NCBI RefSeq assembly: GCF_008369445.1
Contig: NZ_VTWH01000003.1
Coordinates: 186,001 to 250,000 of the forward strand
Source of the DNA: Aureimonas fodinaquatilis
GTDB taxonomy: Bacteria; Pseudomonadota; Alphaproteobacteria; Rhizobiales; Rhizobiaceae
Direction: 5' to 3'
Length of the DNA stretch: 64,000 nucleotides
The position numbers and the translations under genes were made by a program. Position 1 is the stretch's first letter. Every line of letters begins with the position of its first letter. Below, one piece after another: positions 35,367 through 51,588 of this stretch. Below the pieces are notes generated by a model. The model saw only the letters and a program-made list of their open reading frames with translations, ran no database searches and was not told the DNA's origin.

Positions 35367-35882
35367 TCACCTGTAATCGGTCTCAACATTGGAGAATTCA
35401 TGTCGGGAGCTGATGAGGCGCAGCTCGGCCAAGGCACGCTCAGAGTTGCGCACCAGTTTTTCCGATACCGAGAGAAGGACTTTCAACTCCTCGCCATCAA
35501 CATCCTGAAACAGAATGTCGTTGATGGTGCGCACAATCTTGATAACGTCTGATACTGCACTTTTTCCTGCCGCAGTGAGATTGATGAGCACACCGCGCCT
35601 GTCCACCGGGCTGGGCCGTTTGTTGAGCAGACCCTTGCGAACAAGCCTGCCAACCTCTGTTGTGGCATGGGTTGGAGCAAGACCAATATTGCCGGCAATG
35701 GCAGCAATGCCCACACCTTCCTCCCCCTGCATATAGGCCACGCTCATCAGCACCATGAACTGGGTGCCGGTCAGTCCCATTTCCCGCGCGAACCCTTCCC
35801 GGCAATCCGCAAGGCGCCCGGCCGCCTGTACGAAGCGGTAGATGGACTGGCGGAAGTGGTGATCCGTGTTGTTGCTCAACAT
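35367..35882 (-). CDS. MarR family transcriptional regulator
   Basis: A winged-helix MarR regulator of about 171 residues. The DNA-binding region is about residues 40-105 (GIAAIAGNIGLAPTHATTEVGRLVRKGLLNKRPSPVDRRGVLINLT), with the wing in SPVDRRG. The frame is open to 36110, but the upstream part covers the divergent promoter; I choose ATG 35882, with GTG 35897 also possible. Neither has a strong ribosome binding site. It is divergent from the flavin reductase/monooxygenase genes, with a perfect palindrome at 36001-36015 between them. It probably represses those genes and responds to the aromatic substrate. Confidence 0.85.
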   Translation of the reverse strand: MLSNNTDHHFRQSIYRFVQAAGRLADCREGFAREMGLTGTQFMVLMSVAYMQGEEGVGIAAIAGNIGLAPTHATTEVGRLVRKGLLNKRPSPVDRRGVLINLTAAGKSAVSDVIKIVRTINDILFQDVDGEELKVLLSVSEKLVRNSERALAELRLISSRHEFSNVETDYR

Positions 35883-35994
35883 GTCGGGCAGCGACACGGT
35901 GCGCGGGGGGAAGACGTCTGCCAAGGCAATCTCCAGATTTGAACCGACAAGGGCCAAACCTGTATAGCCCGAAAAAAAATCAAAATGCCACCAC

Positions 35995-36015
35995 TTGACA
36001 TGTACATAATGTACA
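35995..36015. promoter_or_regulatory. Promoter with MarR operator palindrome TGTACAT-A-ATGTACA
   Basis: A TTGACA -35 box (35995-36000) is directly followed by a perfect 7-1-7 palindrome at 36001-36015, lying where it would occupy the promoter spacer. It is centred in the divergent region between the MarR gene and the flavin reductase and is a strong operator candidate. The -10 box is not clear. Confidence 0.7.
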
Positions 36016-36043
36016 TATTGACTGTAGGTAAAAGGAGATGGCA

Positions 36044-36544
36044 ATGGATGCACGTGAGCTTCGCAATCTATTTGGTCACTTTGCCACCGGCGTAGCGGTG
36101 GTGACCGCAAAATTGCCCGATGGCAACAAGGTCGGAGTGACGATCAGCTCTTTCAACTCCATTTCGCTGGAGCCTGAGCTGGTGATGTTCAGCTTGACCA
36201 ACACATTGTTGAGTCTGCCGGCTTTTGAAAGCGCAGTGAGTTACGGCATCAATTTTCTTGCCGCTGACCAGCAGGAAGTTTCCCGCCGGTTTGCCGTAAA
36301 AGGCGAGGATAAATGGGCCGATACTGCCATGCGGCATGGTGAAAGTGGTGCGCCTCTCCTTGATGGAGCCTTGGCCCATATCGAGTGCAGCCTTCACCAG
36401 CGCGTCGAAGCCGGGGACCACGTGATTTTCATCTGCCGGGTGATCAGCTTTGCCACGCCGGGGGCGACCAAAGAGCCGCTCGTTTTCTTCAAAGGTCGAT
36501 ATTGCGGCATCGAGACTCCCGCACCGCTCTGCCAGTCCGCCTGA
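36044..36544 (+). CDS. Flavin reductase (HpaC-like), partner of the downstream monooxygenase
   Basis: A 166-residue flavin reductase-domain protein that supplies reduced FAD/FMN from NAD(P)H. Family stretches are FGHFATGVAVVTA, GVTISSFNSISLEPELVMFSL and HVIFICRVISF. The ribosome binding site AAAGGAG touches the ATG at 36038 with no spacing, so ATG 36044 (six bases) is the better start. It lies 114 bases before an HpaB-type monooxygenase, the classical two-component arrangement. Confidence 0.9.
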   Translation: MDARELRNLFGHFATGVAVVTAKLPDGNKVGVTISSFNSISLEPELVMFSLTNTLLSLPAFESAVSYGINFLAADQQEVSRRFAVKGEDKWADTAMRHGESGAPLLDGALAHIECSLHQRVEAGDHVIFICRVISFATPGATKEPLVFFKGRYCGIETPAPLCQSA

Positions 36545-36658
36545 CATCCGGAAGGTGTCAAACCTCCCGTCATAAGTCGAACACTCTGTTTCAACCCAAT
36601 TTTTTCGAATTGCCTTAGCGCGGTTCCGGGAAAAGTTGCTCTCAGGAGAATATGCCAC

Positions 36659-38167
36659 ATGACCGCATCTGCACTCGCTGCCGTTTCCCGAAGCGGGCCC
36701 GCCACGGCTCCGCTTCGCACCGGGGCTGATTTTCTTGCCGATCTGCGCAACACCCCGCGCACCATCATTGTCGATGGAAGAACCGTTTCCGATCCGTCCA
36801 GCGATCCGGCGTTTCGCGAAGCGGCGCGCTCAATTGCCCGTCTGTATGATTTTGCCGCGGCTCCGGAGAACCTGGAGACAATGACATATCCATCGCCGGT
36901 GGATGGTCTGCCAGCTTTGCGCGCATATCAGATTCCTGAAACCCATGATGATCTTCGAGCCAAGCGAATTGCTGCCGAAAAATGGGCGGAGCTGACATTC
37001 GGCCTCATGGGCCGTTCTCCTGATCACGTAGCCGGTTTCTTCTGTGGTTTTGCCGCCAAGTCTTCGGTTTTTGCTGCTGGCGGCCAGCAATATGCAGACA
37101 ATGTTGTGCGGTTTTACGAACATTTGCGGGCAACGCATGCCTATGTCGCCTATGCAATTGTGCCGCCTCAGATCGACCGCAGCAAACCTGCTCATCAACA
37201 GGCCGACCCGACGCTTTACGCAGGCGTGGTGAAGGAAACGACAGAAGGAATTTACATTTCCGGCGCCCAACAACTGGCGACGGGTGCGGTTTTTGCAGAT
37301 TATATTCACCTGAGCTCCATACATCCGCTGCGCCCCGGCGATGAAAACTATGCACTCAGCCTTGCCGTGCCGGCCACGGCCAAGGGTGTCCGCCTCTATG
37401 TCCGCAAGCCTTTCAACCTTCAGGCAACCGATGCTGGCGAATATCCGCTGACAACGCGATTTGACGAAACCGACAGCATGGTTGTTTTCGACAATGTGTT
37501 TGTGCCTTGGGAGCATGTGTTCGCCTACAAGAATCTCGAAGTGACGTTCAATCAGTGGTGGAAAACCCCTGCGCATCTTTATGGAAATCTTCAGGCCCAG
37601 GCGCGCTACGCAACCAAGCTGCGTTTCTTGCTTGGAATTGCAAAACGCATGAATGAAATCACCGGCAATGATGCAACGCCGCCGGTTCAGGTCATGATGG
37701 GCGAACTGGCCGCTTACGCTTCAATTGTCGATGGGATGCTGAAATCGCAGGAAACAATGGCGACTTACGATGAAGAGGGCGTTCTCTGGCCTTCCAAAAC
37801 GTCGCTTTATTCCGTCATGGCTCTGCAATCGGAAATCAACCCCAAGATGGTGGACATCGTCAGGGAGATGACAGGCGCAGGCATGCTGACGATCCCATCT
37901 TCATCCAAAGACTTCGATAATCCGGAAATTGCAGCCGAAATTGAGCGGTATTATGTGTCCGGAGTGACCAATGCCCAGGACAGAATTGCCCTGATGCGTC
38001 TGGCATGGGATTTCATCGGCTCGGAATTTGGTAACCGCCACCAGCAGTATGAGAAGTTCTATGGCGGCGCGTCGTTCCTGGTAAAAATGAATGTCTTCCG
38101 CTCATTCGACTTCAACCGTTCAGGCGCGCTTGTCGATAAGGCGCTGAATCTTCCGCCTGTCGAATAG
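36659..38167 (+). CDS. Flavin-dependent monooxygenase of the 4-hydroxyphenylacetate 3-hydroxylase (HpaB) family
   Basis: A 502-residue protein of the HpaB family, which has the acyl-CoA dehydrogenase fold and uses reduced FAD from a separate reductase to hydroxylate phenols or heteroaromatics. Recognisable stretches are LMGRSPDHVAGFFCGFA, YVAYAIVPPQIDRSK, FDNVFVPWEHVFAYK and EMTGAGMLTIPSS. Length matches the large-subunit (HpaB/PvcC) group. It probably carries out the first oxidation of the ring substrate. Because enamidase-like and amidase genes follow, the substrate could be a nitrogen heterocycle rather than 4-hydroxyphenylacetate; that is inference. Confidence 0.9.
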   Translation: MTASALAAVSRSGPATAPLRTGADFLADLRNTPRTIIVDGRTVSDPSSDPAFREAARSIARLYDFAAAPENLETMTYPSPVDGLPALRAYQIPETHDDLRAKRIAAEKWAELTFGLMGRSPDHVAGFFCGFAAKSSVFAAGGQQYADNVVRFYEHLRATHAYVAYAIVPPQIDRSKPAHQQADPTLYAGVVKETTEGIYISGAQQLATGAVFADYIHLSSIHPLRPGDENYALSLAVPATAKGVRLYVRKPFNLQATDAGEYPLTTRFDETDSMVVFDNVFVPWEHVFAYKNLEVTFNQWWKTPAHLYGNLQAQARYATKLRFLLGIAKRMNEITGNDATPPVQVMMGELAAYASIVDGMLKSQETMATYDEEGVLWPSKTSLYSVMALQSEINPKMVDIVREMTGAGMLTIPSSSKDFDNPEIAAEIERYYVSGVTNAQDRIALMRLAWDFIGSEFGNRHQQYEKFYGGASFLVKMNVFRSFDFNRSGALVDKALNLPPVE

Positions 38168-38182
38168 TCAGGCAGCGCATCG

Positions 38183-38220
38183 GGTCCCGCAGAAGGTGTC
38201 AGTCGCCTTCTTGCGGGGCC
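38183..38220. terminator. Bidirectional hairpin between monooxygenase and GntR genes
   Basis: The arms CCCGCAGAAGG and CCTTCTTGCGGG pair with one bulged base, flanked by GGT/GCC. It lies between convergent genes and overlaps the last codons of the GntR gene. Confidence 0.65.
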
Positions 38221-38873
38221 GAGTTTGCGTAAACTTCAAAAGCTGCTTCTGCTGCACGTGTCACATGCATGACCGCCATGCCACGTGCAGCCTCCTCATC
38301 ACCGTCGGCGATGGCATTGGCAATCCAGGATAGTTCTTCAGCAGAAGCCAAGGCTCGCCCGGCTCTCGACATCGACTTGCCGCGAAGGAAGCTGATTCTT
38401 GCGTGCAACCCTTCCAGAATTTCGGCAATGATCGGGTTATGCGCAATGCGCAAAACAATGTCGTAAAAAGCTTTGGTTGAGGAAATCTGTCGTGCGGCAT
38501 CGCCACGGCGCGCAGCATCTTCAAATGCCTCAAGGGCAAGCCGGAGGTCAGATATGTCGGCGGGCTTGGCCATGCGCGCGGCCAGGGCTGCAATCTCGCC
38601 CTCAAGCAGCATTCTCGTTTTGTAAATCTGCTCTGCATGCTCCCAGGGCATCAATGGAATTACGGGCCCTTTGTTGGGAATGATGTCCACAAGCCGCTCT
38701 GCTTCCAGACGGCGCAAAGCCTCGCGAACAGAGGGGCGGCTGACATTCAGCATCTGACAGAGTTCGGCCTCGACCAGTCTGTCGCCTGGTTTGAAACGAC
38801 CCTCGACAATCGCCTTTCGTAAGACCCGCACGGTCTCACTGAGTACGGTGTTTGGACTGATTTTGAGTTCCAC
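38199..38873 (-). CDS. GntR family transcriptional regulator (FCD type)
   Basis: A FadR/FCD-type regulator. The winged helix-turn-helix (SETVRVLRKAIVEGRFKPGDRLVEAELCQMLNVSRPSVREALRRLEAERLV) is followed by a helical ligand domain. The frame is open to 39044, but that start would place a perfect operator-like palindrome inside the gene. GTG 38873, with a GGGG run 8 bases upstream, gives 224 residues, the usual length; GTG 38933 is also possible. It is divergent from the DUF1185/enamidase operon and probably represses it until a pathway intermediate binds. Confidence 0.85.
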   Translation of the reverse strand: MELKISPNTVLSETVRVLRKAIVEGRFKPGDRLVEAELCQMLNVSRPSVREALRRLEAERLVDIIPNKGPVIPLMPWEHAEQIYKTRMLLEGEIAALAARMAKPADISDLRLALEAFEDAARRGDAARQISSTKAFYDIVLRIAHNPIIAEILEGLHARISFLRGKSMSRAGRALASAEELSWIANAIADGDEEAARGMAVMHVTRAAEAAFEVYANSAPQEGD

Positions 38874-39018
38874 TGCGTTGCCCCGGCTTTCGACATCACG
38901 CTGCGCCGCAGCGTTTCCGGTGATCTTGCGCACCTTTGAAATGCTTCTGACGCCATGTTCTGTCGCATTGAAGTGCGGTTGAAACGCAACCGCTCCAACG
39001 AAAAAATCTCTAGCACGC

Positions 39019-39041
39019 TTTTGTCTTTTTGTAAGACAAAA
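39019..39041. promoter_or_regulatory. Candidate GntR operator, perfect 9-bp inverted repeat
   Basis: The arms TTTTGTCTT and AAGACAAAA are perfectly complementary around a 5-base spacer (TTTGT). They lie in the divergent region between the GntR gene and the DUF1185 gene. Confidence 0.65.
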
Positions 39042-39055
39042 CACGATTTTATGAT

Positions 39056-39068
39056 TGACAGATTGTCA
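39056..39068. promoter_or_regulatory. Second operator-like palindrome TGACA-GAT-TGTCA over a TTGACA box
   Basis: A perfect 5-3-5 palindrome overlaps a consensus TTGACA (39055-39060) and lies 47 bases before the DUF1185 start. Binding here would block the -35 region. It shares TGTC/GACA with the repeat at 39019-39041. Confidence 0.6.
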
Positions 39069-39114
39069 GACATTAACTTAGCGTTGCGCAACTTCATTCA
39101 TGTGAGTTTTGGTT

Positions 39115-39702
39115 ATGGATCTGAATATTCGTCGCGTTCTTTCTTTTGTGGATGACATTTATGAGGAAGGCGTCACCCGGGTCGCAACGCCGTTGCGCAA
39201 GGCTGCCATCATTTTTGTGATTGAGAACCCGATGGTCGGCACCAAGGGTGCGGATCTTTCAGAGATGATTGCTGTCAGCCCAAGCCTTGGCGAAAAAGTG
39301 GGCGAAAAGCTTCTGGCCGTCATGGGCGATTTCGACATTCAAAGCTATGGCAAAGGTGGGCTTGTTGGGCTGGGTGGCGAAGCAGAACATGCCAACGCTC
39401 TGCTGACCACAGCGTTTGCGAACCCGATCCGCAAGTTGATTGGCGGGGCAGATGCATGGATATCGTCCTACCAGAAGGTAGCCGGTCCAAATACGGTCAT
39501 CGATATTCCGATGAACCATAAGGATGAGGTCTATGTCCGCTCACATTATGATGGCATGACCGTCAGCGTGCCGAACGGTCCGCTTCACGATGAGATTGCC
39601 ATCATCTTCTGTGCCGCAAGCCGTGGGCGTCTGAATGCGCGCGTGGGCGGGATGACACATGACGAAGTGTCTGCACGCAAAAGCGCCGCCGCATCGGCAT
39701 AA
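39115..39702 (+). CDS. DUF1185 'amino acid synthesis' family protein
   Basis: A 195-residue protein of the PF06684 (DUF1185) family, whose known structures show a chorismate-mutase-like fold and whose reaction is unknown. Recognisable stretches are LRKAAIIFVIENPMVG, DIPMNHKDEVYVRSHYDGMTV and GPLHDEIAIIFCAASRGR. ATG 39115 is preferred over TTG 39109; the ribosome binding site is weak. It is the first gene of the operon with the enamidase-like hydrolase, the duplicated barrel protein and the amidase. This context suggests action on a small amide or ring intermediate rather than amino-acid biosynthesis. Confidence 0.85.
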   Translation: MDLNIRRVLSFVDDIYEEGVTRVATPLRKAAIIFVIENPMVGTKGADLSEMIAVSPSLGEKVGEKLLAVMGDFDIQSYGKGGLVGLGGEAEHANALLTTAFANPIRKLIGGADAWISSYQKVAGPNTVIDIPMNHKDEVYVRSHYDGMTVSVPNGPLHDEIAIIFCAASRGRLNARVGGMTHDEVSARKSAAASA

Positions 39703-39725
39703 ACATCGGCAAGCCGGGAGGGGAC

Positions 39726-40922
39726 ATGAAAACCGCAATCGTAAACATTGGCCGCATTTTGACGGGCGACATCGCAGCGCCAACCGTTGCAGGCGATGCA
39801 ATTCTTCTGGATGCGGGGCTGATTTCCAGTGTTGGAACATTGAGCGCCAGCCAGGTTGAATCGGCCGATGTTGTTATTGATGCGGCAGGAACAATCGCTA
39901 TTCCAGGGCTTATTGATTCCCATGTCCACATAACCTTCGGCGACTATACGCCCAGGCAGAAGACAGTCGGCTACCTGGAAAGCTACACGCATGGCGGCGT
40001 AACGTCTTCGGTTTCTGCTTCGGAAGTGCATGTTCCGGGGCGGCCTAAAGATCCGGCCGGCGTCAAGGCGTTGGCTGTTGCCGCGATGAAGTCGTTTCAA
40101 ACATTCCGGCCCGGCGGCATGAAGGTGCATGCCGGTGCCGTTATTCTGGAACCGGGTCTGACCGCGCAGGATATGGTTGAACTGAAGGCTCTGGGCCTGC
40201 GCTATGCAAAAGCGGGTTTTGGCGCGTTTGAAACGCCGTTTGATTATGCGCCGATTGTCAAGGCGGCGCGTGATGCCGGGCTGATCACCATGGCTCATAC
40301 CGGTGGATCATCCATACCCGGCTCGTCCGGCGTCTGGGCTGAACATATTCTGGCAATGAACCCGCATGTATCATTCCACGTCAATGGCGGACCGATTGCC
40401 ATGCCGGAAGCCGGGTTCAGGCGGCTCGTGGATGAATCTGATGTTGCGCTGCAGATCTGCACGGCGGGCAACCTGCGAACGGCTCTGCTTGTCGCAGAAA
40501 TGGCGCGCTCGTCGGACAAGCTGGACCGGCTGCTGGTGGCAACGGATACGCCAACCGGAAGCGGCATCATGCCGCTGGGAATTCTTTATACACTCAGTCA
40601 CCTCTGTTCCCTGGGCGGACTTGATCCGGAACTGGCATTTGCCACCGCCTGCGGCAACAATGCCCGGGTGTTCGACCTGAATTCCGGCTTCATCGCTCCA
40701 GGTCGTGACGGTGATATTGTTCTGATAGACGCCTGTGCCGGCGGTTCTCAGGATGATGCGCTGAGCGCTCTGCGCAATGGCGATATTCCGGCAGTTTCAG
40801 CAGTGATAACCGATGCCGTGCCGCGTTTTGTTGGGCGCAGCCGCAATACGCCGGCCGGCATTCGCAAGGTTCGCACGGCTTCCAGCAAGATTGTCGAGCT
40901 TTTCGAGGGTGGCGCGCATTAG
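39726..40922 (+). CDS. Enamidase-like amidohydrolase
   Basis: A 398-residue metal-dependent amidohydrolase. The HxH metal motif is DSHVHIT (His66, His68), with further ligand-type motifs in TMAHTGGSSIPGSS and FHVNGGP. From memory, PRQKT, HGGVT, PGRPKD, GSSIPGSS and the C-terminal SRNTPAG closely follow enamidase of Eubacterium barkeri. That enzyme opens 6-oxo-tetrahydronicotinate to 2-formylglutarate and ammonia. A GGGAGGGG ribosome binding site precedes ATG 39726. I infer hydrolytic opening of a cyclic enamide or lactam from the ring substrate. The precise substrate is not established. Confidence 0.85.
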   Translation: MKTAIVNIGRILTGDIAAPTVAGDAILLDAGLISSVGTLSASQVESADVVIDAAGTIAIPGLIDSHVHITFGDYTPRQKTVGYLESYTHGGVTSSVSASEVHVPGRPKDPAGVKALAVAAMKSFQTFRPGGMKVHAGAVILEPGLTAQDMVELKALGLRYAKAGFGAFETPFDYAPIVKAARDAGLITMAHTGGSSIPGSSGVWAEHILAMNPHVSFHVNGGPIAMPEAGFRRLVDESDVALQICTAGNLRTALLVAEMARSSDKLDRLLVATDTPTGSGIMPLGILYTLSHLCSLGGLDPELAFATACGNNARVFDLNSGFIAPGRDGDIVLIDACAGGSQDDALSALRNGDIPAVSAVITDAVPRFVGRSRNTPAGIRKVRTASSKIVELFEGGAH

Positions 40923-40968
40923 GCCTTTCTCACGGTTCAGTCGATAGAAATAGAAGAGGAATGGCAAA

Positions 40969-41649
40969 ATGCCGATCGACGCAGTTCTTTTTTCAGAAAT
41001 GACGCCGGCTCCGGATTGGGAGGAGCGCTTCAATTCCTGGTACGACACGCACCACATTCCCTTGCGCATGACGTCAGAGGGGTTCGTCGGGGCTCAACGT
41101 TACCGAAGCACGTCGGACAACGGCTATCTCGCAATTTACGATATGACCGGTGTTGATGCGCTTTCGACCCCGCAATATCAGGAAATCAAAGGAAATCCGT
41201 CCGAAGAAACGGCCTGGATGCTGAAATCCGTTTCGAACTTCACCCGATATATCGGCCATCTGATTGGCTGGCAGACGCGGGAGGAAGTTTCCGAGGAAGA
41301 CCTTCTGAACTCCAGATACGCCTATGGGGTGCTGTTCAACGTGCCGGAAGACCGGCAGGCTGAATTCGATGACTGGTATGACACGGACCATGTGCCCTTG
41401 CTGCTGAAAAACGAGCATTGGCTGGGTTGCCGTCGCTACCGGATTGTTGATGGCGCACCCGACAAGGTTACGCATCTGGCCATCCACCACCTTGCCGATC
41501 TGGCAGCGCTTGAAAGCCCGGAACGCGCGGCCGCACGGCAGACCGAATGGCGCGACCGGCTTTCGCAGGAGCCATGGTTCAAGGGGCGCTATGTAACGTT
41601 CGAGCGCCATGGCGAGCGCTTCGACGGCATCGCTTCCAGCACAAAGTAA
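40969..41649 (+). CDS. Tandem-duplicated ferredoxin-like (dimeric alpha+beta barrel) protein
   Basis: A 226-residue protein made of two repeats. Repeat 1 contains WEERFNSWYDTHHIPLRM...RYRS (about 17-48) and repeat 2 AEFDDWYDTDHVPLLL...RYRI (about 129-160). The shared pattern F-x-x-WYDT-x-H-x-PL with a later RYR is like the EthD/DUF4286-type dimeric barrels, here fused so that one chain could form a whole barrel. Such proteins bind or decompose small aromatic or reactive intermediates. ATG 40969 follows AGAGG (40954-40958) with a 10-base spacing. It lies between the enamidase-like and amidase genes. The reaction is unknown. Confidence 0.7.
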   Translation: MPIDAVLFSEMTPAPDWEERFNSWYDTHHIPLRMTSEGFVGAQRYRSTSDNGYLAIYDMTGVDALSTPQYQEIKGNPSEETAWMLKSVSNFTRYIGHLIGWQTREEVSEEDLLNSRYAYGVLFNVPEDRQAEFDDWYDTDHVPLLLKNEHWLGCRRYRIVDGAPDKVTHLAIHHLADLAALESPERAAARQTEWRDRLSQEPWFKGRYVTFERHGERFDGIASSTK

Positions 41650-41660
41650 CGGCGCGCACC

Positions 41661-42992
41661 ATGAATGGTTTTTCTTCCTATTCTGCCCAGTCAAGCGCGT
41701 TCCAGACCGGGCGCAGCTCTCCCTCGCGTCTTCTGGAAGATGCGCTGGCATTGATTGCGAAAGAGGATGACAGGGTTGGCGCGTTTGTTGCGCTGAATGT
41801 TGACGGCGCAAGACGTGCGGCAGCGGAATCAACAAGCCGTTGGCTTGCCGGCAAACCTTTGTCTCCGCTCGACGGTGTTCTGGTCGGCGTTAAAGACATC
41901 ATTGAAACCAGAGATATGCCAACGGGGCAGGGCTCACCCATGTGGGAAGGGTTTGCCACAAACCGTGATGCGGCCAGCGTGCAGGCTCTGCGTGAGGCGG
42001 GCGCTGTTATCCTCGGTAAAACGGCAACCACCGAATTTGCCTCTACCGAACTTTATGCAAAAACCACCAATCCGCATGACTCAAAAAGAACGCCGGGTGG
42101 ATCAAGCAGTGGCTCAGCGGCTGCCGTTGGCGCGGGTTTTCTGCCGCTGGCCCTTGGCAGCCAGGTCGTCGGTTCAACGGTGCGGCCTGCAAGCTATTGC
42201 GGCTGCTTTGGCTACAAGCCAACCTTTGGTGCTCTCAACCGCAGCGGCTCCTATGATCATCTGAGCCAGAGCTGCGTCGGCATTCTGGGTGCGACGCTTG
42301 AAGATGTGTGGCTGTGCGCACGCGCCATTGCCTCGCGCGTCGGCGGAGATCCAGGTCATGCAGGGTTGTCTGGCCCCGATGAACTGCCTGCGGCCCAAGC
42401 GCCGCGCAAACTGGTGGTTCTGGAAACCGACGGGTGGCGCAAATCCACCTCTGGAGCACGCGAAGCGTTTGCGGCGGCGCGCGAGCGAATGTCGGGTCAG
42501 GGTATAGAGCTGGCAGATAGAAATTCCGATCCGAAGATTGATGCATTTGAAGGCCTGATTGCCGGAGCTCTTGATCTGACATGGATCATGATGGCGTGGG
42601 AATTCAGATGGCCGCTGGCAACGTATGAGCAGCGCGCTGCATCGCAGGTGAGCGCGGCAATGCTGGCGCGGTTGCGACAGGCAGAGGCGATGACGCAACG
42701 TGACTATGCCGACGCATTGGAGCGCCGGGTAAGAATACGGCAGGCTTTTGCCGACCTGATGACAAACTATGACGGCGCGGTGACTTTGGCGGCAACCGGC
42801 GCTGCACCGGCCAGTTTCGAAACAACGGGTCATCCTGGCTTCAACGTGCCAGCCTCATTGCTGGGCGTGCCAGCAGTTTCGCTGCCTGTTCTGGAAGATG
42901 AAGGCATGCCGCTGGGGCTGCAACTGATTGGCCGTGCCAATGGCGACGCAGAGCTGTTCGCGATGGCCCGCAGGATATGTGAGCAACGCTGA
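41661..42992 (+). CDS. Amidase signature family hydrolase
   Basis: A 443-residue amidase-signature enzyme. The catalytic Ser-cisSer-Lys triad is visible: Lys78 (GVKDII), the cis-Ser in GGSSSGSA (148-150) and the nucleophile Ser172 in GSTVRPA. The nucleophile loop reads GSQVVGSTVRPASYCG rather than the usual DTGGSIR, as in some small-molecule amidases. The open frame from 41547 overlaps the barrel-protein gene; ATG 41661 starts 12 bases after its stop. It should release ammonia from an amide intermediate of the pathway, acting after or beside the enamidase-like enzyme. Confidence 0.88.
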   Translation: MNGFSSYSAQSSAFQTGRSSPSRLLEDALALIAKEDDRVGAFVALNVDGARRAAAESTSRWLAGKPLSPLDGVLVGVKDIIETRDMPTGQGSPMWEGFATNRDAASVQALREAGAVILGKTATTEFASTELYAKTTNPHDSKRTPGGSSSGSAAAVGAGFLPLALGSQVVGSTVRPASYCGCFGYKPTFGALNRSGSYDHLSQSCVGILGATLEDVWLCARAIASRVGGDPGHAGLSGPDELPAAQAPRKLVVLETDGWRKSTSGAREAFAAARERMSGQGIELADRNSDPKIDAFEGLIAGALDLTWIMMAWEFRWPLATYEQRAASQVSAAMLARLRQAEAMTQRDYADALERRVRIRQAFADLMTNYDGAVTLAATGAAPASFETTGHPGFNVPASLLGVPAVSLPVLEDEGMPLGLQLIGRANGDAELFAMARRICEQR

Positions 42993-43020
42993 TGGCACAG
43001 GCGCACAAGGACCAAAAGAC

Positions 43021-43527
43021 ATGCTGAAACTTGAAAAGCTGCTTGGGGTCTTTGTCGACCTTCTGGGCATCGTGCTGATTGCAGGCGTCCTTCTCAATTT
43101 CTCCAATGCTGTCATGCGCTACGGATTTGGCGCAAGCTTTGTCTGGGCCGAGGAAATCATGATCTTCGGTCTGATATTGATCGTCATGGCCGGCATCGTG
43201 GTGATCACCATACGGTACGATCATCTGCGGATTGACGCGATTTCTCCGATTTTGCCCGATTGGGTCAAAGCCGTCATACGCATCATGATAAGCCTGATCA
43301 TATGCGGTGTGCTGGCCTACATCGCAGTGCAATCCCTCACCATCGTGCAGTTGATGATGCGTCTGGGGCAAACCAGTGTTGCTGCCCGCATTCCAATGTG
43401 GATTCCGCACAGCTTCCTGCTTGTTTCCTTCTCGCTTGCCGCAATGGCGGCGCTTTATCGGGCCGGGGTGGATCTGCGCCAGTTCCTGAGCAAACAAACC
43501 AACCCCGCAGAAGAGACGGTAAACTGA
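43021..43527 (+). CDS. TRAP transporter small permease (DctQ type)
   Basis: A 168-residue small TRAP membrane subunit with four predicted helices. The first is LLGVFVDLLGIVLIAGVLLNFSNAV and it is followed by the family region MRYGFGASFVWAEEIMIFGLI. ATG 43021 starts 28 bases after the amidase stop; AAGGA lies about 10 bases upstream. It links the binding protein at 44808 to the large permease at 43529 for Na+- or H+-driven uptake of an organic acid. Its position inside the catabolic operon suggests that it imports the pathway substrate. Confidence 0.9.
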   Translation: MLKLEKLLGVFVDLLGIVLIAGVLLNFSNAVMRYGFGASFVWAEEIMIFGLILIVMAGIVVITIRYDHLRIDAISPILPDWVKAVIRIMISLIICGVLAYIAVQSLTIVQLMMRLGQTSVAARIPMWIPHSFLLVSFSLAAMAALYRAGVDLRQFLSKQTNPAEETVN

Positions 43528-43528
43528 G

Positions 43529-44791
43529 ATGATCTGGACGCTGGGCGCATTTCCTCTTTTTACGCTGTTGCTTGGGCTGCCGGTCTTTGTCGTTCTGCTG
43601 CTGGGTGTTCTGGCAACAATCGGCTTTGTCCTGCCGCTGCCGGCAACGATGGTGCACCAGAACATGTTTGGTGCAATTTCCAGCTACACCCTGCTTGCGG
43701 TGCCGTTTTTTCTGTTTGCCGGCGAGTTGATGGGCCGTGGCGGCATTTCCAGCCGCATCATTGAATGGGTGTTGGCGCTGGTGGGCAGAACGCCGGGCGC
43801 CGTAGGTCTGGTGGCAGTGGGAACCTGTGGGGTCTACGGCTCCATCTCCGGCTCAAGCCCGGCCACCGTTGCCTCCATCAGCCGGCAGATTTACCCGGAT
43901 ATGGTGCGCAGCGGCTACTCAAAGCAGTTTTCGATTGGCCTGATCAATTCGGGTGGTGCGATTTCTGTTGTGCTGCCGCCCAGCATCAATTTCCTGCTGT
44001 ATGGCGCGGTCGCCGAACAATCCATTGTCCGGCTTTTCACTGCAGGCATTCTGCCTGGATTGCTGATGCTCGGCATTCTGGCGATAGCGGTGGTCGTTTA
44101 TGCCATGCGAAAGGGCATTCGTGAGGGACAGGCATTCTCGCTTCCTCACCTTCTCAAAACAACACGGCGCGCAGTATGGGCGCTCCTGGCCCCGGTCATC
44201 GTGCTCGGCTCAATCTACGGAGGAGTTGCAACTCCAACGGAAGCAGGCGGCGTTGCCTGTGTGTACGCCATCCTTGTAACAACGCTGATCCACCGCGACC
44301 TGACATTTCGCGATGTTGTCCGGATCGCCGGCAGCTCTGCGCTGTTGACCGCACAGATCATGATCATCGTGGCTGCGGCCGGGGTCTTTTCATGGATCTT
44401 GACGATCAGCGGTTTTCAGAGTGCGCTTTCCAACTACGTGGCTGCGCTCGATGTTCAGCCCTGGATGATCATGCTGGCCATCAACGTGCTTCTGCTGATC
44501 CTGGGCTGCTTTATCGACCCGGCATCGGCAATCCTGACACTGACGCCGCTTCTGCTGCCCATCGCAATGCAGCTCGGCATTGATCCCATCCATTTCGGGG
44601 TGATCATGACCGTAAACCTGGCCATTGGCATGTATACGCCGCCTCTGGGCCTCAACCTCTTCGTGACGCAAGCGACGCTGAACGTCAGCACTCTCGATAT
44701 TTTCCGCGGGGTCATGCCGTTCGTGTTCCTGCAGATCATTGCATTGATGATCGTCACCTACGTTCCCGCACTTTCTCTCGCTTTAATTTAA
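43529..44791 (+). CDS. TRAP transporter large permease (DctM type)
   Basis: A 420-residue DctM-type permease with about 12 predicted helices. Family stretches are PFFLFAGELMGRGGIS, GSISGSSPATVASIS and TVNLAIGMYTPPLGLNLF. It starts one base after the small-subunit stop. It forms the solute channel of the TRAP system with the small subunit and binding protein on either side. Confidence 0.94.
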   Translation: MIWTLGAFPLFTLLLGLPVFVVLLLGVLATIGFVLPLPATMVHQNMFGAISSYTLLAVPFFLFAGELMGRGGISSRIIEWVLALVGRTPGAVGLVAVGTCGVYGSISGSSPATVASISRQIYPDMVRSGYSKQFSIGLINSGGAISVVLPPSINFLLYGAVAEQSIVRLFTAGILPGLLMLGILAIAVVVYAMRKGIREGQAFSLPHLLKTTRRAVWALLAPVIVLGSIYGGVATPTEAGGVACVYAILVTTLIHRDLTFRDVVRIAGSSALLTAQIMIIVAAAGVFSWILTISGFQSALSNYVAALDVQPWMIMLAINVLLLILGCFIDPASAILTLTPLLLPIAMQLGIDPIHFGVIMTVNLAIGMYTPPLGLNLFVTQATLNVSTLDIFRGVMPFVFLQIIALMIVTYVPALSLALI

Positions 44792-44807
44792 TGGAAAGGC
44801 TCGACAG

Positions 44808-45818
44808 ATGAAGCATTCAATCTTCTCCAAAGTGACCAGAAATTCTCTGACTGCGCTGGCTTTCACACTTGCCGGAGCCCTGCCGGTATCGGCTCTGGCC
44901 GCCGACTACACTTTGAAGCTCAGCATGCCGACCATCAACGACATGCAGTTCGAGTGGTCGCAAATGTTCAAGGAGGAGCTGGAAGCCGCGTCTGAAAACC
45001 GCATTGAGGTGCAGATATATCCTGCCAATCAGCTTGGGCCGATCGCGAGCGTGATCGAGGGTCTGCAGCTCGGCTCGATTGAAGCCACGATCACGCCGGC
45101 GGAATTTTATGTTGGGGTGGACAAGCGCTATCAGGCACCTGCTGTGCCCGGCCTTTTCACCAGCATGGAAGACGCGCGTGAAAAGCTGGATGCACCGGAA
45201 GCGCGCGACGCGCTGCTGGCGGTTGGCGTTGACAAGGGGCTGCGGGGCATTGCTGCCGTCGTCTACGGGCCGCAGGTTGTCATCTCACGCATGAAGACTG
45301 ACAATATTGCGGGCCTTGCTGCCCAGAAAATCCGGGTTCTGTCATCCGAGACAGAAATCGGCACAATCAACTCGCTCGGTGCTTCTGCTGTGCCCATGCC
45401 GTTGAACGAGGTACCGGCAGCGCTTCAGCAGGGAGCGCTGGATGGAGCCAGCACGGTTCTGGATGTCTTCATTTCACTCAAGTCCTACGATGTTGCACCA
45501 ACCGCTGTTCCAACTGAGCTTTGGTACACGATTTCGCTGGCCACGGTGAGCGACATCTGGTTTCAGAGCCTACCGGAAGACCTGCAGCAGGCAGTGCTGG
45601 CATCTGCACAAAGCGCCGAAGAGCGCATGTTTGCCCGCCAGCTTGAACGCCAGGCAACCAACAATGCGCTGTGGACCGAAAATGGCGGCGTGATTGTTGA
45701 ACTGTCGGATGAGGAACAAGCCAAGGCGCAGGAGTCAGCGGCAGTGGTTGCGGAAACTTTTCTTAGCGCCAACCCCGATATTCGTGAGCTCTACGACCTG
45801 ATCAAGGGTTCCAACTGA
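44808..45818 (+). CDS. TRAP transporter substrate-binding protein (DctP type)
   Basis: A 336-residue periplasmic binding protein. A Sec signal ends near residue 30 (VSALAADY). The conserved DctP stretches QIYPANQLGPIASVIEGLQLGSIEA and KIRVLSSETEIGTINSLGASAVPMPLNEVPAALQQGALDG are present. Residues NSLGASAVPMPLNE lie where most DctP proteins carry the carboxylate-binding arginine motif. Ligands of the class are usually carboxylates. Two hairpins follow the gene. Confidence 0.93.
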   Translation: MKHSIFSKVTRNSLTALAFTLAGALPVSALAADYTLKLSMPTINDMQFEWSQMFKEELEAASENRIEVQIYPANQLGPIASVIEGLQLGSIEATITPAEFYVGVDKRYQAPAVPGLFTSMEDAREKLDAPEARDALLAVGVDKGLRGIAAVVYGPQVVISRMKTDNIAGLAAQKIRVLSSETEIGTINSLGASAVPMPLNEVPAALQQGALDGASTVLDVFISLKSYDVAPTAVPTELWYTISLATVSDIWFQSLPEDLQQAVLASAQSAEERMFARQLERQATNNALWTENGGVIVELSDEEQAKAQESAAVVAETFLSANPDIRELYDLIKGSN

Positions 45819-45831
45819 TCAAGGACATTGA

Positions 45832-45864
45832 GGGTGCATCGGTCATCAACTGACCGGTGCACCC
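45832..45864 (+). terminator. Long hairpin after the TRAP operon
   Basis: A 14-bp stem (GGGTGCATCGGTCA with TGACCGGTGCACCC, one G-U pair) with a 5-base loop starts 13 bases after the binding-protein stop. No U-tract follows. It probably protects or ends the TRAP transcript. Confidence 0.7.
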
Positions 45865-45872
45865 GAGCATTT

Positions 45873-45903
45873 CTTGCCGGAACGCTGACGTTTCAACGGC
45901 AAG
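45873..45903. repeat. Palindromic element with arm GTTTCAACGGCA (related to 5862-5887)
   Basis: CTTGCCG and CGGCAAG form the outer arms and AACG/CGTT an inner pair. The sequence ACGTTTCAACGGCA is shared exactly with the element at 5877-5890. It appears to be a second, less perfect copy of the same dispersed palindrome. Confidence 0.5.
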
Positions 45904-45920
45904 GCGATGCGACGGGACAA

Positions 45921-45964
45921 GAGCGTTGGACATTGCATGCAACGCTCTATCTTTTTTCATTTTT
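45921..45964 (+). terminator. Rho-independent terminator just upstream of the aldehyde dehydrogenase
   Basis: An 8-bp stem (GAGCGTTG with CAACGCTC) and 11-base loop are followed by TATCTTTTTTCATTTTT. The T-run ends only about 11 bases before the aldehyde dehydrogenase ATG, so the element is either the end of the TRAP operon or an attenuator for that gene. Confidence 0.75.
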
Positions 45965-45975
45965 CTGAGGGTGGC

Positions 45976-47415
45976 ATGGTGCGCACGGACCAATTCTATA
46001 TCGACGGGCAGTGGGTAGCGGCGGAAACGAGTGAGACTTTTCCGGTTGTGAATCCGGCAACGGAAAAAACCGTTGCGCAGTTGAGCATGGGAACGGCTGA
46101 GCATGTGGACCGTGCCGTTGCGGCTGCGCGCAAGGCGTTTCCGGAATTCTCACGTACAACGCGTGAAGAACGTCTGGCGCTGCTTGAACGGATTATTGCA
46201 GTCTACGAGTCCAGGGCCGAGGAATTGGCACATCTGGTGATGATTGAAATGGGTTCGCCTTTGTGGTTCGGCCGTGAGGTGCAGGTGCAAACTGCGCTCA
46301 ATCATTTCAAACAGGCGCATAAAGTTCTGCAAGACTATGATTTCGGACATATGATGAGCGGCACACGCATTGTGCGCGAGCCTGTGGGCGTGTGCGGGTT
46401 CATCACTCCGTGGAACTGGCCGATCAACCAGGTCGCTGCCAAGTTTGCTTCCGCCTTTGCTGCTGGCTGCACAGTTGTGGTCAAGCCCAGTGAAATCGCG
46501 CCGCTCAGTCCTTTGCTGCTGGCGGAAATCATCCACGAGGCAGGTGTTCCAGCCGGCGTGTTCAATCTCATCAACGGCGACGGCCCAACGGTTGGCGATG
46601 CGATTTCACGCCATCCCGATATCGATATGGTGTCATTCACCGGTTCAACACGCGCCGGGGTACTGGTCGCCAAGGCTGCCGCGGATACGGTGAAGCGGGT
46701 GCATCAGGAACTGGGCGGCAAGTCAGCGAATATTCTTCTGCCGGGAACGGACCTGCAAAAGACGGTTCCCGCCAGTGTTCTGCGCAGCTTCACCAATTCC
46801 GGCCAGTCCTGCCAAGCACCGACGCGGCTGCTCGTACACAGAAGCGAGGCAGGCAAAGTGTACGAGATAGCGCATGCAACGGCGCAAAGCGTGACAGTCG
46901 GTGATCCGGAGGCTTCAGACTCGCGCCTGGGTCCGCTGGCCAGTGAACTTCAGTTCGAGCGTGTGCAGGCGATGATTCAGACCGGGCTGGATGAAGGCGC
47001 AAGATTGCTGGCAGGTGGTCCCGGCCGTCCGGAGCATCTGGCCACTGGCTGGTATGCGCGACCCAGCATTTTTGTGGATGTGCAGCCGCAAATGACGATT
47101 GCGCAGCAGGAAATCTTTGGTCCTGTGCTCAGCATTCTGGTTTATGACACTGTGGACGAGGCGGTGAAAATTGCCAATGACAGCGTTTATGGTCTCGCGG
47201 GCTATGTCAGCGCGCCATCGCTGGACGAAGCAAAAGCGGTGGGCATGCGTCTGCGCGCCGGCCGCATCTATCTCAATGGCGCCCCGCACAGTGGTGCTCA
47301 GGATGTCGAAGCGCCGTTTGGCGGCTACAAGCAGTCTGGAAACGGGCGGGAAGCGGGCCTTTACGGGCTGGAGGATTTCCTCGAGATCAAGGCAATGATC
47401 GGCTATGCGGCCTGA
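45976..47415 (+). CDS. NAD(P)-dependent aldehyde dehydrogenase
   Basis: A 479-residue aldehyde dehydrogenase. Catalytic Asn147 (TPWNW), Glu245 (QELGGKSA) and Cys279 (NSGQSCQAP) are present. TPWNWP and NSGQSC are typical of a subgroup annotated as generic aldehyde dehydrogenases. The open frame begins at 45907, but ATG 45976 has GAGG upstream and the normal N-terminus; the rest would include the terminator. In this context it probably oxidises the aldehyde produced by ring opening (a formyl-dicarboxylate if the enamidase analogy holds). Confidence 0.9.
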   Translation: MVRTDQFYIDGQWVAAETSETFPVVNPATEKTVAQLSMGTAEHVDRAVAAARKAFPEFSRTTREERLALLERIIAVYESRAEELAHLVMIEMGSPLWFGREVQVQTALNHFKQAHKVLQDYDFGHMMSGTRIVREPVGVCGFITPWNWPINQVAAKFASAFAAGCTVVVKPSEIAPLSPLLLAEIIHEAGVPAGVFNLINGDGPTVGDAISRHPDIDMVSFTGSTRAGVLVAKAAADTVKRVHQELGGKSANILLPGTDLQKTVPASVLRSFTNSGQSCQAPTRLLVHRSEAGKVYEIAHATAQSVTVGDPEASDSRLGPLASELQFERVQAMIQTGLDEGARLLAGGPGRPEHLATGWYARPSIFVDVQPQMTIAQQEIFGPVLSILVYDTVDEAVKIANDSVYGLAGYVSAPSLDEAKAVGMRLRAGRIYLNGAPHSGAQDVEAPFGGYKQSGNGREAGLYGLEDFLEIKAMIGYAA

Positions 47416-47534
47416 AGCAGGCCCCAGAAGCCCTTGAACCGTCCATCGGCAGCCGCCGCTTGCTGGTTGCAATTTCAAACTCAAAACCGTTACACGTCTT
47501 GTGTGAAATTGTGTCATCAAGGGCCGAAGTCATC

Positions 47535-48644
47535 ATGAGCCAGACCAAGCTGTTTTCTCCCATCAATGTCGGCGGTGTGAATCTGAAGAACCGCATCGTC
47601 ATTGCACCTATGTGCCAGTATTCAGCGGAAGATGGGAAAACCACTGACTGGCATCTTATGCATCTGGGCAATCTGGCATTGTCTGGCGCGGGCCTTTTGA
47701 CGATAGAGGCAACGGCCGTCAGCCCGGAAGGCCGCATCAGCTATGCTGACGTTGGCCTTTATTCCGATGAATGCGAGGCCGCAATGGAGCGCACACTTGC
47801 CGGTGTGCGCCGCTGGTCAGACACGCCGATTGCCATCCAGCTCGCGCATGCGGGGCGCAAGGCCTCGTCAAACCTGCCATGGAAGGGCGGTCGCCTGCTT
47901 CCTCCGCAGGACCCTGATGGCTGGCAGACGATTGCGCCTTCCGCCGTGCCCTTTGTAGAGGGAGACAATGCGCCGGTTGCAATGGACAGGACGGCGCTGA
48001 ACACCATTCGGGATGCGTTTGCACAGGCCGCGCACCGTGCCGGGCGCCTTGGGTTGGATGCCGTGCAGATTCATTCGGCACATGGCTATCTCCTGCATCA
48101 GTTTCTGTCACCACTTTCCAATCTGCGCGAGGATGAGTATGGCGGTTCGCTGGAAAACCGCATGCGCTTTCCCCTGGAAGTGTTTGACGCTGTGCGCGCT
48201 GCCTTTCCGGCTGACCGGCCGGTTTCTGCCCGGGTTTCGGGAACGGATTGGGTGGAAGACGGCTGGGATGTTGAAGACACCATTGCCTATTCACAGGCGC
48301 TGGTGGCCAGGGGTTGCGCCGCCATCCATGTTTCCGGCGGCGGTCTGCATATTGCGCAGGAAATCCCGATCGGGCCGAGCTATCAGGTACCGCTGGCAAG
48401 AGCGGTCAAGGCAAATGTGAATGTGCCGGTGGTGGCCGTGGGCCTGATCACCGGATTTGATCAGGCCGAGGCGATCCTGACCTCTGGAGATGCCGATCTT
48501 GTCGCCATAGCGCGCGCCGCCCTCTATGATCCGCGTTGGCCATGGCACGCAGCGGCGCATTTTGGCGAAAGCATAGAGGTTGCTCCGCAATATCTGCGCT
48601 GCCAGCCGCGACAGTACCGCAACCTGTTCGTTCAGAAAGACTGA
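47535..48644 (+). CDS. Old yellow enzyme family NADH:flavin oxidoreductase (YqjM-like)
   Basis: A 369-residue OYE-family ene-reductase. The YqjM-type residues Cys27 and Tyr29 (APMCQYSA) and the substrate-binding His180/His183 pair (IHSAHGYLLHQFLSP) are present. It reduces an activated C=C bond with NAD(P)H and FMN. ATG 47535 is chosen because the upstream frame has no ribosome binding site. It could reduce the ring or an unsaturated intermediate before enamide hydrolysis, but it may also be independent of the cluster. It converges on the membrane methyltransferase gene with a 28-base gap. Confidence 0.9.
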   Translation: MSQTKLFSPINVGGVNLKNRIVIAPMCQYSAEDGKTTDWHLMHLGNLALSGAGLLTIEATAVSPEGRISYADVGLYSDECEAAMERTLAGVRRWSDTPIAIQLAHAGRKASSNLPWKGGRLLPPQDPDGWQTIAPSAVPFVEGDNAPVAMDRTALNTIRDAFAQAAHRAGRLGLDAVQIHSAHGYLLHQFLSPLSNLREDEYGGSLENRMRFPLEVFDAVRAAFPADRPVSARVSGTDWVEDGWDVEDTIAYSQALVARGCAAIHVSGGGLHIAQEIPIGPSYQVPLARAVKANVNVPVVAVGLITGFDQAEAILTSGDADLVAIARAALYDPRWPWHAAAHFGESIEVAPQYLRCQPRQYRNLFVQKD

Positions 48645-51536: not shown

Positions 51537-51588
51537 TGCCAGTCTCCCGCCCGGAACCACCCGGATTGCTTGCATTCCTTGATTCGGA

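What the first reader, a model, noticed from the sequence alone, without database searches (positions are those of the whole stretch)
35367..48644. Uncharacterised ring-degradation cluster pairing an HpaB-type monooxygenase with an enamidase-like hydrolase
One contiguous block holds a MarR regulator, flavin reductase, HpaB-family monooxygenase, GntR regulator, DUF1185 protein, enamidase-like amidohydrolase, duplicated barrel protein, amidase, a complete TRAP transporter, aldehyde dehydrogenase and old-yellow-enzyme reductase. The set reads as uptake, hydroxylation, reduction, enamide/amide hydrolysis and aldehyde oxidation of a ring compound. The known enamidase belongs to an anaerobic nicotinate pathway, whereas a flavin monooxygenase implies oxygen. 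If the parts work together this could be an aerobic route to a nitrogen heterocycle that I do not recognise.
Basis: partly seen in the sequence, partly recalled or inferred. Interest (0 to 1): 0.7.

Follow-up and report, generated by a model that had tools for sequence, protein, structure and literature searches.

The report
Oxygenase and enamidase ring-degradation gene cluster
This stretch of bacterial DNA carries an aerobic catabolic gene cluster, found in related form in many other bacteria and not described in the papers searched, that probably takes up a nitrogen-containing ring acid, adds oxygen to the ring and then opens it by hydrolysis; its exact substrate is still unknown.

Summary
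In detail: all genes named are present. The amidohydrolase matches the solved E. barkeri enamidase (2VUN, 344 bits; next PDB hit 31) but lies in a separate clade in which the residue aligned with its Glu164 is Lys (92 rows, against 15 with Glu). The HpaB-type oxygenase has a swapped substrate triad (Arg-His-Tyr for Arg-Tyr-His).

The gene set is conserved though rearranged. AA_synth (DUF1185) occurs in 77 of 80 fetched enamidase loci, HpaB in 28. Close HpaB orthologues found by searching for HpaB itself (3 genomes) all lie in genomes with this enamidase. One genome of another family keeps HpaB, MarR, amidase, TRAP transporter, enamidase, AA_synth, DUF4286 and GntR within 10 kb.

A palindromic operator (TTGTCNGACAA) sits before AA_synth or its neighbours in 32 of 42 loci with the GntR gene and in 1 of 45 without. 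It also precedes amidase-TRAP, an ALDH, FMO or UbiD/SSADH-like genes elsewhere. HpaB genes lack it and have their own MarR. OYE is not conserved.

Best reading: aerobic oxygenation of an N-heteroaromatic acid, then enamide hydrolysis, with AA_synth finishing enamine or imine hydrolysis. Substrate unresolved. A new variant of a known kind.

The parts
35367..36110 (-). MarR-family regulator, divergent from flavin reductase/HpaB (true start probably inside the ORF)
   Evidence: MarR next to HpaB in L033, L052, L160, L161, L162
36000..36016 (.). 17-bp inverted repeat ATGTACATAATGTACAT in the MarR / flavin reductase region, candidate MarR operator
   Evidence: 0 matches in 100 shuffles; a weaker similar repeat in L027; not seen in the other loci compared there
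36038..36544 (+). flavin reductase (PF01613), reductase component
36659..38167 (+). HpaB-family FADH2-dependent monooxygenase with swapped triad R119-H123-Y165
38199..39044 (-). GntR/FCD regulator (likely start near 38873)
   Evidence: conserved with its operator
39019..39041 (.). perfect 9-bp inverted repeat TTTTGTCTT-N5-AAGACAAAA
39062..39074 (.). GntR operator-like palindrome ATTGTCAGACATT (consensus ATTGTCWGACAAT)
39115..39702 (+). AA_synth / DUF1185 protein (PF06684), proposed enamine/imine-hydrolysing partner
   Evidence: in 77 of 80 enamidase loci, within 300 bp in 70 of 80
39726..40922 (+). enamidase-like amidohydrolase, Lys type (K162 aligns with E164 of E. barkeri enamidase)
40969..41649 (+). 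duplicated DUF4286/EthD-like barrel protein
   Evidence: linked to FMO and window-type HpaB loci
41661..42992 (+). amidase-signature amidase, nearest solved relative malonamidase E2
   Evidence: operator in front of its counterpart in L160 and L163
43021..43527 (+). TRAP small membrane subunit (DctQ)
43529..44791 (+). TRAP large membrane subunit (DctM)
44808..45818 (+). TRAP solute-binding protein (DctP)
45979..47415 (+). aldehyde dehydrogenase; its counterpart in G064 carries the GntR-type operator
47535..48644 (+). old yellow enzyme-type reductase; co-oriented but not conserved with the cluster, membership doubtful
29607..31103 (+). succinate-semialdehyde dehydrogenase outside the given interval; 55-63% identical to SSADHs beside enamidase in 7 loci; possible downstream step, membership unproven

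Best explanation
The block is an aerobic catabolic cluster for a carboxylated nitrogen heteroaromatic (pyridone/hydroxypyridine or pyrrole type). The TRAP transporter imports the acid. Flavin reductase supplies FADH2 to the HpaB-family oxygenase, which hydroxylates the ring so that a lactam/enamide tautomer forms. The Lys-type enamidase hydrolyses the ring amide. AA_synth, which has a chorismate-mutase-like fold of the kind RidA imine deaminases also show, then hydrolyses the enamine or imine, releasing ammonia and an aldehyde or ketone. The aldehyde dehydrogenase oxidises that aldehyde; the amidase takes a remaining amide or an amide precursor. Shown: gene identities, conserved association, operator and regulator pairing, Lys/Glu split, swapped HpaB triad. 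Inferred: every reaction, their order, the AA_synth role and the substrate class. Within it, pyrrole-2-carboxylate (two-component oxygenase, 5-hydroxypyrrole-2-carboxylate as cyclic enamide, hydrolysis to 2-oxoglutarate) is the simplest specific candidate, but Mo-enzyme genes beside some relatives favour a pyridine.
For: 2VUN 344.5 bits, next PDB hit 31.1. AA_synth in 77 of 80 enamidase loci and also in nicotinate-type loci: of the 30 best-scoring PF06684 loci, 13 have within about 1.5 kb an enamidase 66-80% identical to the Sulfitobacter one (5 of the 13 were in the alignment, all 5 Glu). HpaB in 28 of 80 loci. Window-type HpaB is one clade of 8 rows (SH-aLRT 99), all in genomes with the Lys-type enamidase; four of the 8 were fetched by way of the enamidase, so the independent count is the 3 genomes found by an HpaB search (G532, G064, G781; 3 of 3). 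L160 keeps HpaB, MarR, amidase, TRAP, enamidase, AA_synth, DUF4286 and GntR within about 10 kb, though no flavin reductase was found in it. Operator TTGTCNGACAA before 31 of 85 AA_synth genes against a mean of 1.2, maximum 2, for permuted palindromes; at AA_synth, GntR or DUF4286 in 32 of 42 loci with GntR, at AA_synth or enamidase in 1 of 45 without. The same operator lies before amidase-TRAP in L160/L163, FMO in L038/L094, and a UbiX/UbiD/SSADH-like operon in L029/L079, and 39 nt before an ALDH 63% identical to the window's on another contig of G064, one of only two exact sites in that genome. Fold basis for AA_synth: PF06684 (PMC2954203 passages), RidA (PMC7311433 passage); TgnF of the trigonelline pathway is said to be a homologue that stimulates succinate-semialdehyde oxidation (PMC7913881 passage). 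Pyrrole-2-carboxylate monooxygenase is listed as a two-component group D enzyme (PMC6165268 passages).
Against: HpaB genes never carry the GntR operator (0 of 36), and in G064 HpaB is on a different contig from the enamidase, so HpaB could serve another pathway. 52 of 80 enamidase loci show no HpaB in the DNA fetched. Exclusion between HpaB and FMO (1 of 78 loci with both, Fisher p 0.004) does not survive correction for relatedness, and the FMO/DUF4286 link is not significant there either (median p 1 and 0.125). ALDH was found in 11 of 80 loci, mostly at low identity, and in G532 the best ALDH (55%) lies elsewhere in the genome. The E. barkeri enamidase is described as doing ring opening and deamination alone (PMC9304392 passage), so it does not need AA_synth. 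The stimulating effect of TgnF was not seen with HcdD. I know of no characterised member of the Lys-type clade. Metal content and substrate are untested; no structure prediction could be run.
Confidence: 0.47

Rival explanations
1. Two neighbouring modules, not one pathway: a MarR-controlled phenol-type HpaB/flavin reductase unit beside a GntR-controlled enamidase unit.
For: Separate regulators and candidate operators; HpaB on another contig in G064; 52 of 80 enamidase loci show no HpaB in the DNA fetched; related HpaBs (40-42% identical) on three plasmids sit with cupin, amidase and DUF2848 and no annotated amidohydrolase nearby.
Against: 3 of 3 genomes with a window-type HpaB found by an HpaB search have the Lys-type enamidase; 28 of 80 enamidase loci contain an HpaB; 94 of 96 aligned HpaB rows, Thermus included, lack the Tyr/His arrangement of the phenol enzymes.
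Confidence: 0.27
2. A cyclic lactam/imide route with an amic acid: the ring is oxygenated (and perhaps reduced by OYE), the amidohydrolase opens it to a half-amide and the malonamidase-like amidase releases ammonia. This resembles the fungal hxn nicotinate pathway (monooxygenases, OYE HxnT, imide hydrolase HxnM, amidase HxnN).
For: Amidase nearest to malonamidase E2 (182 bits) and preceded by the same operator in L160 and L163; monooxygenase, OYE, hydrolase and amidase are all present, as in A. nidulans (PMC9304392 passages and section 12).
Against: OYE is not conserved; HxnM is related to PuuE-type allantoinase/polysaccharide deacetylase by that paper's text, not to enamidase; amidase was found in 6 of 80 loci; the ring opener is enamidase-like.
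Confidence: 0.18
3. The amidohydrolase is not a hydrolase here but a ring-cleaving dioxygenase like KpiC of Arthrobacter IN13, acting on the dihydroxylated ring made by HpaB or FMO.
For: KpiC is an amidohydrolase-family extradiol dioxygenase of 3,4-dihydroxypyridine, with enamidase named among its closest reviewed homologues (28%; PMC7356986 passages); 29 of 107 enamidase rows have Gln for the first metal His.
Against: The window protein keeps His67, His69, His193, His220 and Asp276 of the E. barkeri enzyme and is 44% identical to it; AA_synth partnership is shared with loci of the nicotinate type.
Confidence: 0.08

Closest known systems
Enamidase of Eubacterium barkeri (2VUN), nicotinate fermentation
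   Same: Family, length and the aligned His67/His69/His193/His220/Asp276; 344 bits over residues 2-380, 44% identity
   Different: Glu164 is Lys162; separate clade, 92 against 15 rows; clustered with an O2-using oxygenase
4-hydroxyphenylacetate 3-hydroxylase HpaB/HpaC (2YYJ and others)
   Same: Oxygenase with both HpaB Pfam domains beside a flavin reductase
   Different: Substrate triad R-Y-H replaced by R-H-Y; carboxyl-binding Ser197/Thr198 replaced by Ile/His (roles from passages of PMC10537072 and PMC10816480)
Trigonelline pathway (tgn) of Acinetobacter baylyi
   Same: Uses an AA_synth homologue (TgnF) with an aldehyde dehydrogenase, TgnE (passage in PMC7913881); its flavin oxygenase and enamide hydrolysis are recalled
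   Different: Oxygenase and hydrolase families differ (recalled); the original paper was not held
Aspergillus nidulans hxn nicotinate pathway
   Same: Monooxygenases, OYE, cyclic amide hydrolase, amidase
   Different: HxnM is of another hydrolase family; OYE is not conserved in the bacterial clusters
Two-component pyrrole-2-carboxylate monooxygenase, Rhodococcus (EC 1.14.13.130)
   Same: Two-component group D oxygenase on an N-heteroaromatic acid (review table and reference)

Membership tests
Enamidase (E. barkeri type) | Sequence kinship with 2VUN well above other amidohydrolases of known structure | tested here: met
   344.5 bits; next PDB hit 31.1 bits
Enamidase (E. barkeri type) | Same clade and same residue at Glu164 (metal-bridging role recalled) | tested here: not met
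   Lys in the window and 91 other rows; Glu in 15 rows including 2VUN; one branch, SH-aLRT 98
Enamidase (E. barkeri type) | Activity on 6-oxo-1,4,5,6-tetrahydronicotinate and a reductase that makes it | not tested
   Activity not testable here; the window was not searched with a 6-hydroxynicotinate reductase, and none of the ten proteins scanned was one
HpaB (4-hydroxyphenylacetate 3-hydroxylase) | HpaB_N and HpaB domains, separate flavin reductase | tested here: met
HpaB (4-hydroxyphenylacetate 3-hydroxylase) | Arg-Tyr-His substrate triad and curated family score | tested here: not met
   R119-H123-Y165; TIGR02309 305 bits against cut-off 480
AA_synth / DUF1185 (PF06684) | Pfam score over cut-off and the cavity residues named for BB2672 (Glu90, His93, Arg176) | tested here: met
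   197.9 bits, cut-off 27; by the alignment these are window Glu91, His94, Arg178: 28, 29 and 29 of 29 rows
RidA-like enamine/imine deaminase (works like) | Catalysis of enamine/imine hydrolysis | not testable with these tools
   Only a published fold resemblance and genomic partnership
Succinate-semialdehyde dehydrogenase (window 29607-31103) | NCBIfam TIGR01780 cut-off | tested here: met
   685 bits, cut-off 646

The most novel reading that the evidence does not exclude
A widespread aerobic ring-opening strategy: alternative oxygenases (swapped-triad HpaB, PnpA/HspB-like FMO, perhaps Rieske or Mo enzymes) feed one conserved hydrolytic core made of a Lys-type enamidase and AA_synth, with AA_synth (DUF1185) acting as a dedicated enamine/imine deaminase. 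This would give PF06684 its first defined catalytic role and reveal a new family of N-heteroaromatic oxygenases.
Probability: 0.33. Interest if true: 0.72.

Novelty: new variant of a known kind. Interest (0 to 1): 0.52.

Why it matters
PF06684 structures were published in 2010 without an assigned reaction (PMC2954203). Its close tie to enamidase genes suggests a direct assay. The cluster points to a common aerobic route for nitrogen-ring acids whose oxygenase and ring opener are annotated today only as 'HpaB family' and 'amidohydrolase'. The operator and regulator pair gives a handle for finding further genes and the inducer.

Tried and rejected
Membership of OYE in the core was rejected (2 of 80 loci, 29-32% identity), though it is co-oriented with the operon. 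Dihydroorotase/imidazolonepropionase identity was rejected. A clean 'either HpaB or FMO' rule was considered; it is significant without tree correction but not with it, so it is only suggestive. A nicotinate reading of the window was considered; Glu-type enamidases belong to that context, the window's does not. Literature searches found no paper describing the cluster: (8 papers hold 'enamidase'; listing seen, passages of two read, PMC7356986 and PMC9304392, plus one section of the latter); for pyrrole-2-carboxylate; for pyridine; for DUF1185. The library lacks most subscription papers. The UbiD of L029 was compared with PDB: nearest 7pda, whose substrate I do not know. A MarR operator comparison across loci was inconclusive. 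Rows dropped: window copies L001/L002 from the enamidase tree; 4-kb duplicates L101-L105 and L131-L133 from the HpaB tree. L079 and L161/L170 appear to be one contig (Methylobacterium gnaphalii, 50,261 bases), so L079 counts as HpaB-less although HpaB lies about 13 kb away; L005 and L168 are also one genome.
Full report
What is there. The window is part of contig 3 of a 3.93 Mb assembly. From 35367 to 48644 it encodes, in order: MarR (-), flavin reductase, HpaB, GntR/FCD (-), AA_synth (PF06684, formerly DUF1185), amidohydrolase, a duplicated DUF4286 barrel, amidase, DctQ, DctM, DctP, aldehyde dehydrogenase and OYE. The + strand genes from AA_synth to OYE have short gaps and could be one transcript; HpaB and flavin reductase form a second unit facing MarR.

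The amidohydrolase. Against all PDB sequences it hits E. barkeri enamidase 2VUN with 344.5 bits, the next entry with 31.1; identity is 44% over 380 residues. But it is not the nicotinate enzyme. In an alignment of 107 sequences the residue aligned with Glu164 of 2VUN is Lys in 92 and Glu in 15; the two groups are separated by one branch (SH-aLRT 98, a quick tree), and the Glu group holds 2VUN and the Sulfitobacter enzyme, whose locus carries an annotated 6-hydroxynicotinate reductase. That Glu164 bridges the two metals is recalled; a carboxylated Lys is a usual bridge in this superfamily (recalled). In 29 of the 107 the first metal His is Gln, which I cannot explain.

The oxygenase. Its nearest solved relatives are HpaBs of Thermus and E. 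coli at about 250 bits, and it scores below the NCBIfam HpaB cut-offs (305 against 480, 275 against 885). Reviews give Arg100-Tyr104-His142 (Thermus numbering) as the substrate triad and Ser197/Thr198 as the carboxyl contacts (passages). The window has Arg119-His123-Tyr165 and Ile221/His222. After duplicates are removed, 94 of 96 aligned rows, Thermus included, have Arg-His-Tyr (102 of 104 before). The set was gathered by similarity to the window protein, so this describes its kin and not all HpaBs. Whether other characterised HpaB-family enzymes share Arg-His-Tyr was not tested.

Conservation of the set. One scan of named genomes with an alignment of close enamidases gave 214 confirmed stretches, of which the best 80 became loci. 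In these 80: AA_synth 77, GntR 35, HpaB 28, DUF4286 26, MarR 26, flavin reductase 13, ALDH 11, DctM 8, DctP 6, amidase 6, DctQ 2, OYE 2. Many loci are cut by contig ends, so these are lower bounds; several GntR, MarR and ALDH hits are distant and need not be orthologues. AA_synth lies within 300 bp of the enamidase in 70 of 80. HpaB comes in two kinds: 4 loci have close relatives of the window's (69-72%) and 24 only a more distant kind (36-43%). On a tree of 96 rows the window kind is one clade of 8 (SH-aLRT 99). All 8 lie in genomes with the Lys-type enamidase, 7 on the same contig and one (G064) on another. Four of the 8 were fetched by way of the enamidase and one is the window, so the independent evidence is the three genomes found by an HpaB search of 397 order genomes at 62-73% identity, 3 of 3. 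The next nearest HpaBs (G160 58%, G308 49%, G202 47%) have no enamidase within the 19.5 kb fetched. L160 (G532) holds HpaB 72%, MarR 47%, amidase 63%, DctQ 44%, DctM 71%, DctP 60%, enamidase 67%, AA_synth 61%, DUF4286 51% and GntR 47% within about 10 kb, without a recognised flavin reductase or ALDH. Order and strand differ from the window, so the set, not the order, is conserved. In the window's own genus no other genome searched had the enamidase (0 of 20), so the cluster is patchy there.

Alternative oxygenases. In the 88 loci examined, 21 have an FMO, 28 have HpaB and one has both. The nearest solved relatives of one such FMO (L016) are PnpA (253 bits) and HspB, 6-hydroxy-3-succinoylpyridine 3-monooxygenase (179 bits). 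Among 78 loci of at least 12 kb the HpaB/FMO table is 1, 25, 17, 35 (Fisher p 0.004). DUF4286 accompanies FMO in 17 of 18 and window-type HpaB in 3 of 3, but the distant HpaB kind in 0 of 23. After correction for relatedness the HpaB/FMO exclusion is not significant (8 independent pairs, none the same way, 0.9 opposite on average, median p 1) and neither is FMO with DUF4286 (6 pairs, 3.8 the same way, median p 0.125). I treat 'interchangeable oxygenases' as a suggestion.

Regulation. The region upstream of AA_synth is enriched in pieces of one palindrome. TTGTCNGACAA with up to one mismatch is found before 31 of 85 AA_synth genes, against a mean of 1.2 and a maximum of 2 for permuted palindromes. 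It is present at AA_synth, GntR or DUF4286 in 32 of 42 loci with a GntR match, and at AA_synth or enamidase in 1 of 45 without (the two counts use slightly different genes). The window's copy is at 39062-39074 with one mismatch; a window-wide count of the motif by itself is not above chance, so the evidence is the conservation of position. The operator also precedes amidase-TRAP in L160 and L163, FMO in L038 and L094, and a UbiX/UbiD/ALDH operon in L029 and L079, the ALDH of L029 scoring best as succinate-semialdehyde dehydrogenase but below cut-off. In G064 the exact 12-mer occurs at two places in the whole genome: the AA_synth/DUF4286 gap and, on another contig, 39 nt before an ALDH 63% identical to the window's. 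That supports ALDH, amidase and TRAP as pathway members independently of position. In the window's own genome the one other exact site lies at the start of an SDR gene on contig 5, meaning unknown. No HpaB, flavin reductase or MarR gene had the operator (0 of 36, 0 of 15, 0 of 37); they probably answer to MarR, for which 36000-36016 is a candidate site. This is the main evidence for the two-module rival.

AA_synth. PF06684 matched in 82 of 385 class genomes. Of the 30 best-scoring loci, 13 have within about 1.5 kb an enamidase 66-80% identical to the Sulfitobacter one, 17 a UPF0280 gene and 3 a 6-hydroxynicotinate reductase; many are tandem pairs. So PF06684 accompanies both enamidase types. 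[quoted passage not shown] RidA imine deaminases share that general fold (PMC7311433, one passage). A PF06684 homologue, TgnF, is said to stimulate succinate-semialdehyde oxidation in trigonelline breakdown, while no such effect was seen for HcdD (PMC7913881, passages). Enamide hydrolysis leaves an enamine or imine. I therefore propose that AA_synth hydrolyses it. This is inference; no sequence kinship with RidA was tested and structure prediction was off. PMC9304392 calls the E. barkeri enamidase bifunctional, opening the ring and deaminating, which is a point against needing a partner.

Which substrate. TRAP and tripartite transporter genes near the loci suggest a carboxylate (inference). 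Pyrrole-2-carboxylate fits the two-component oxygenase chemistry (review table), since the 5-hydroxylated ring is a cyclic enamide that would give 2-oxoglutarate; with prior decarboxylation (UbiD genes in L029 and L038) the product would be succinate semialdehyde. SSADH genes 55-63% identical to the window's 29607-31103 gene stand in 7 of the enamidase loci. Against pyrrole, xanthine-dehydrogenase-type Mo-enzyme genes lie beside several loci (L014, L017, L021 and, from its ORF translations, L160), as in pyridine and quinoline routes (recalled). The amidase, nearest to malonamidase E2, and OYE recall the fungal hxn nicotinate route with its OYE, cyclic imide hydrolase and amidase (PMC9304392 passages and section 12). 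I cannot choose between these.

Verdict. The core is enamidase plus AA_synth, often with GntR; window-type HpaB, amidase, TRAP, DUF4286 and ALDH belong by conservation or shared operator; OYE does not on present evidence. Its chemistry as a whole is a new variant of known oxygenase-plus-hydrolase ring degradation, with two features a specialist would want explained: the Lys-type enamidase clade and the swapped HpaB triad.

Noticed in passing
window 21710-31103: Upstream catabolic block read from ORF translations: ABC transporter, class III aminotransferase-like gene, TPP enzyme (NCBIfam PRK06112, 926 bits) and SSADH.
   Followed up: partly
enamidase rows such as L053-L100 (29 of 107): First metal-ligand His of the enamidase is Gln in a mostly betaproteobacterial group; 12 of these 29 have FMO and 5 HpaB.
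   Followed up: partly
L173, L174, L175: HpaBs 40-42% identical to the window's sit in a repeated cluster: flavin reductase, HpaB, cupin/DUF4437, amidase, DUF2848, branched-chain-type ABC transporter (3 of 4 annotated loci looked at); no paper was found holding three of the search terms.
   Followed up: no
L177-L206: PF06684 tandem pairs with UPF0280 (17 of 30 loci) and 6-hydroxynicotinate reductase (3 of 30) in genomes of the window's class.
   Followed up: partly
L021, L050, L052: FMN-dependent 2-hydroxyacid dehydrogenase-like, benzoylformate decarboxylase-like TPP enzyme and Mo-enzyme genes near the enamidase, as if a side chain were removed first (L021 and L052 scanned; L050 by family clustering only).
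   Followed up: no
L207 coordinate about 5786 (G000:C5:69785): The only other exact GntR-type operator in the window's genome lies at the start of an SDR gene.
   Followed up: no
window 49257-52057: P-type metal ATPase with a divergent MerR-type regulator right of the cluster, read from the ORF translations.
   Followed up: no
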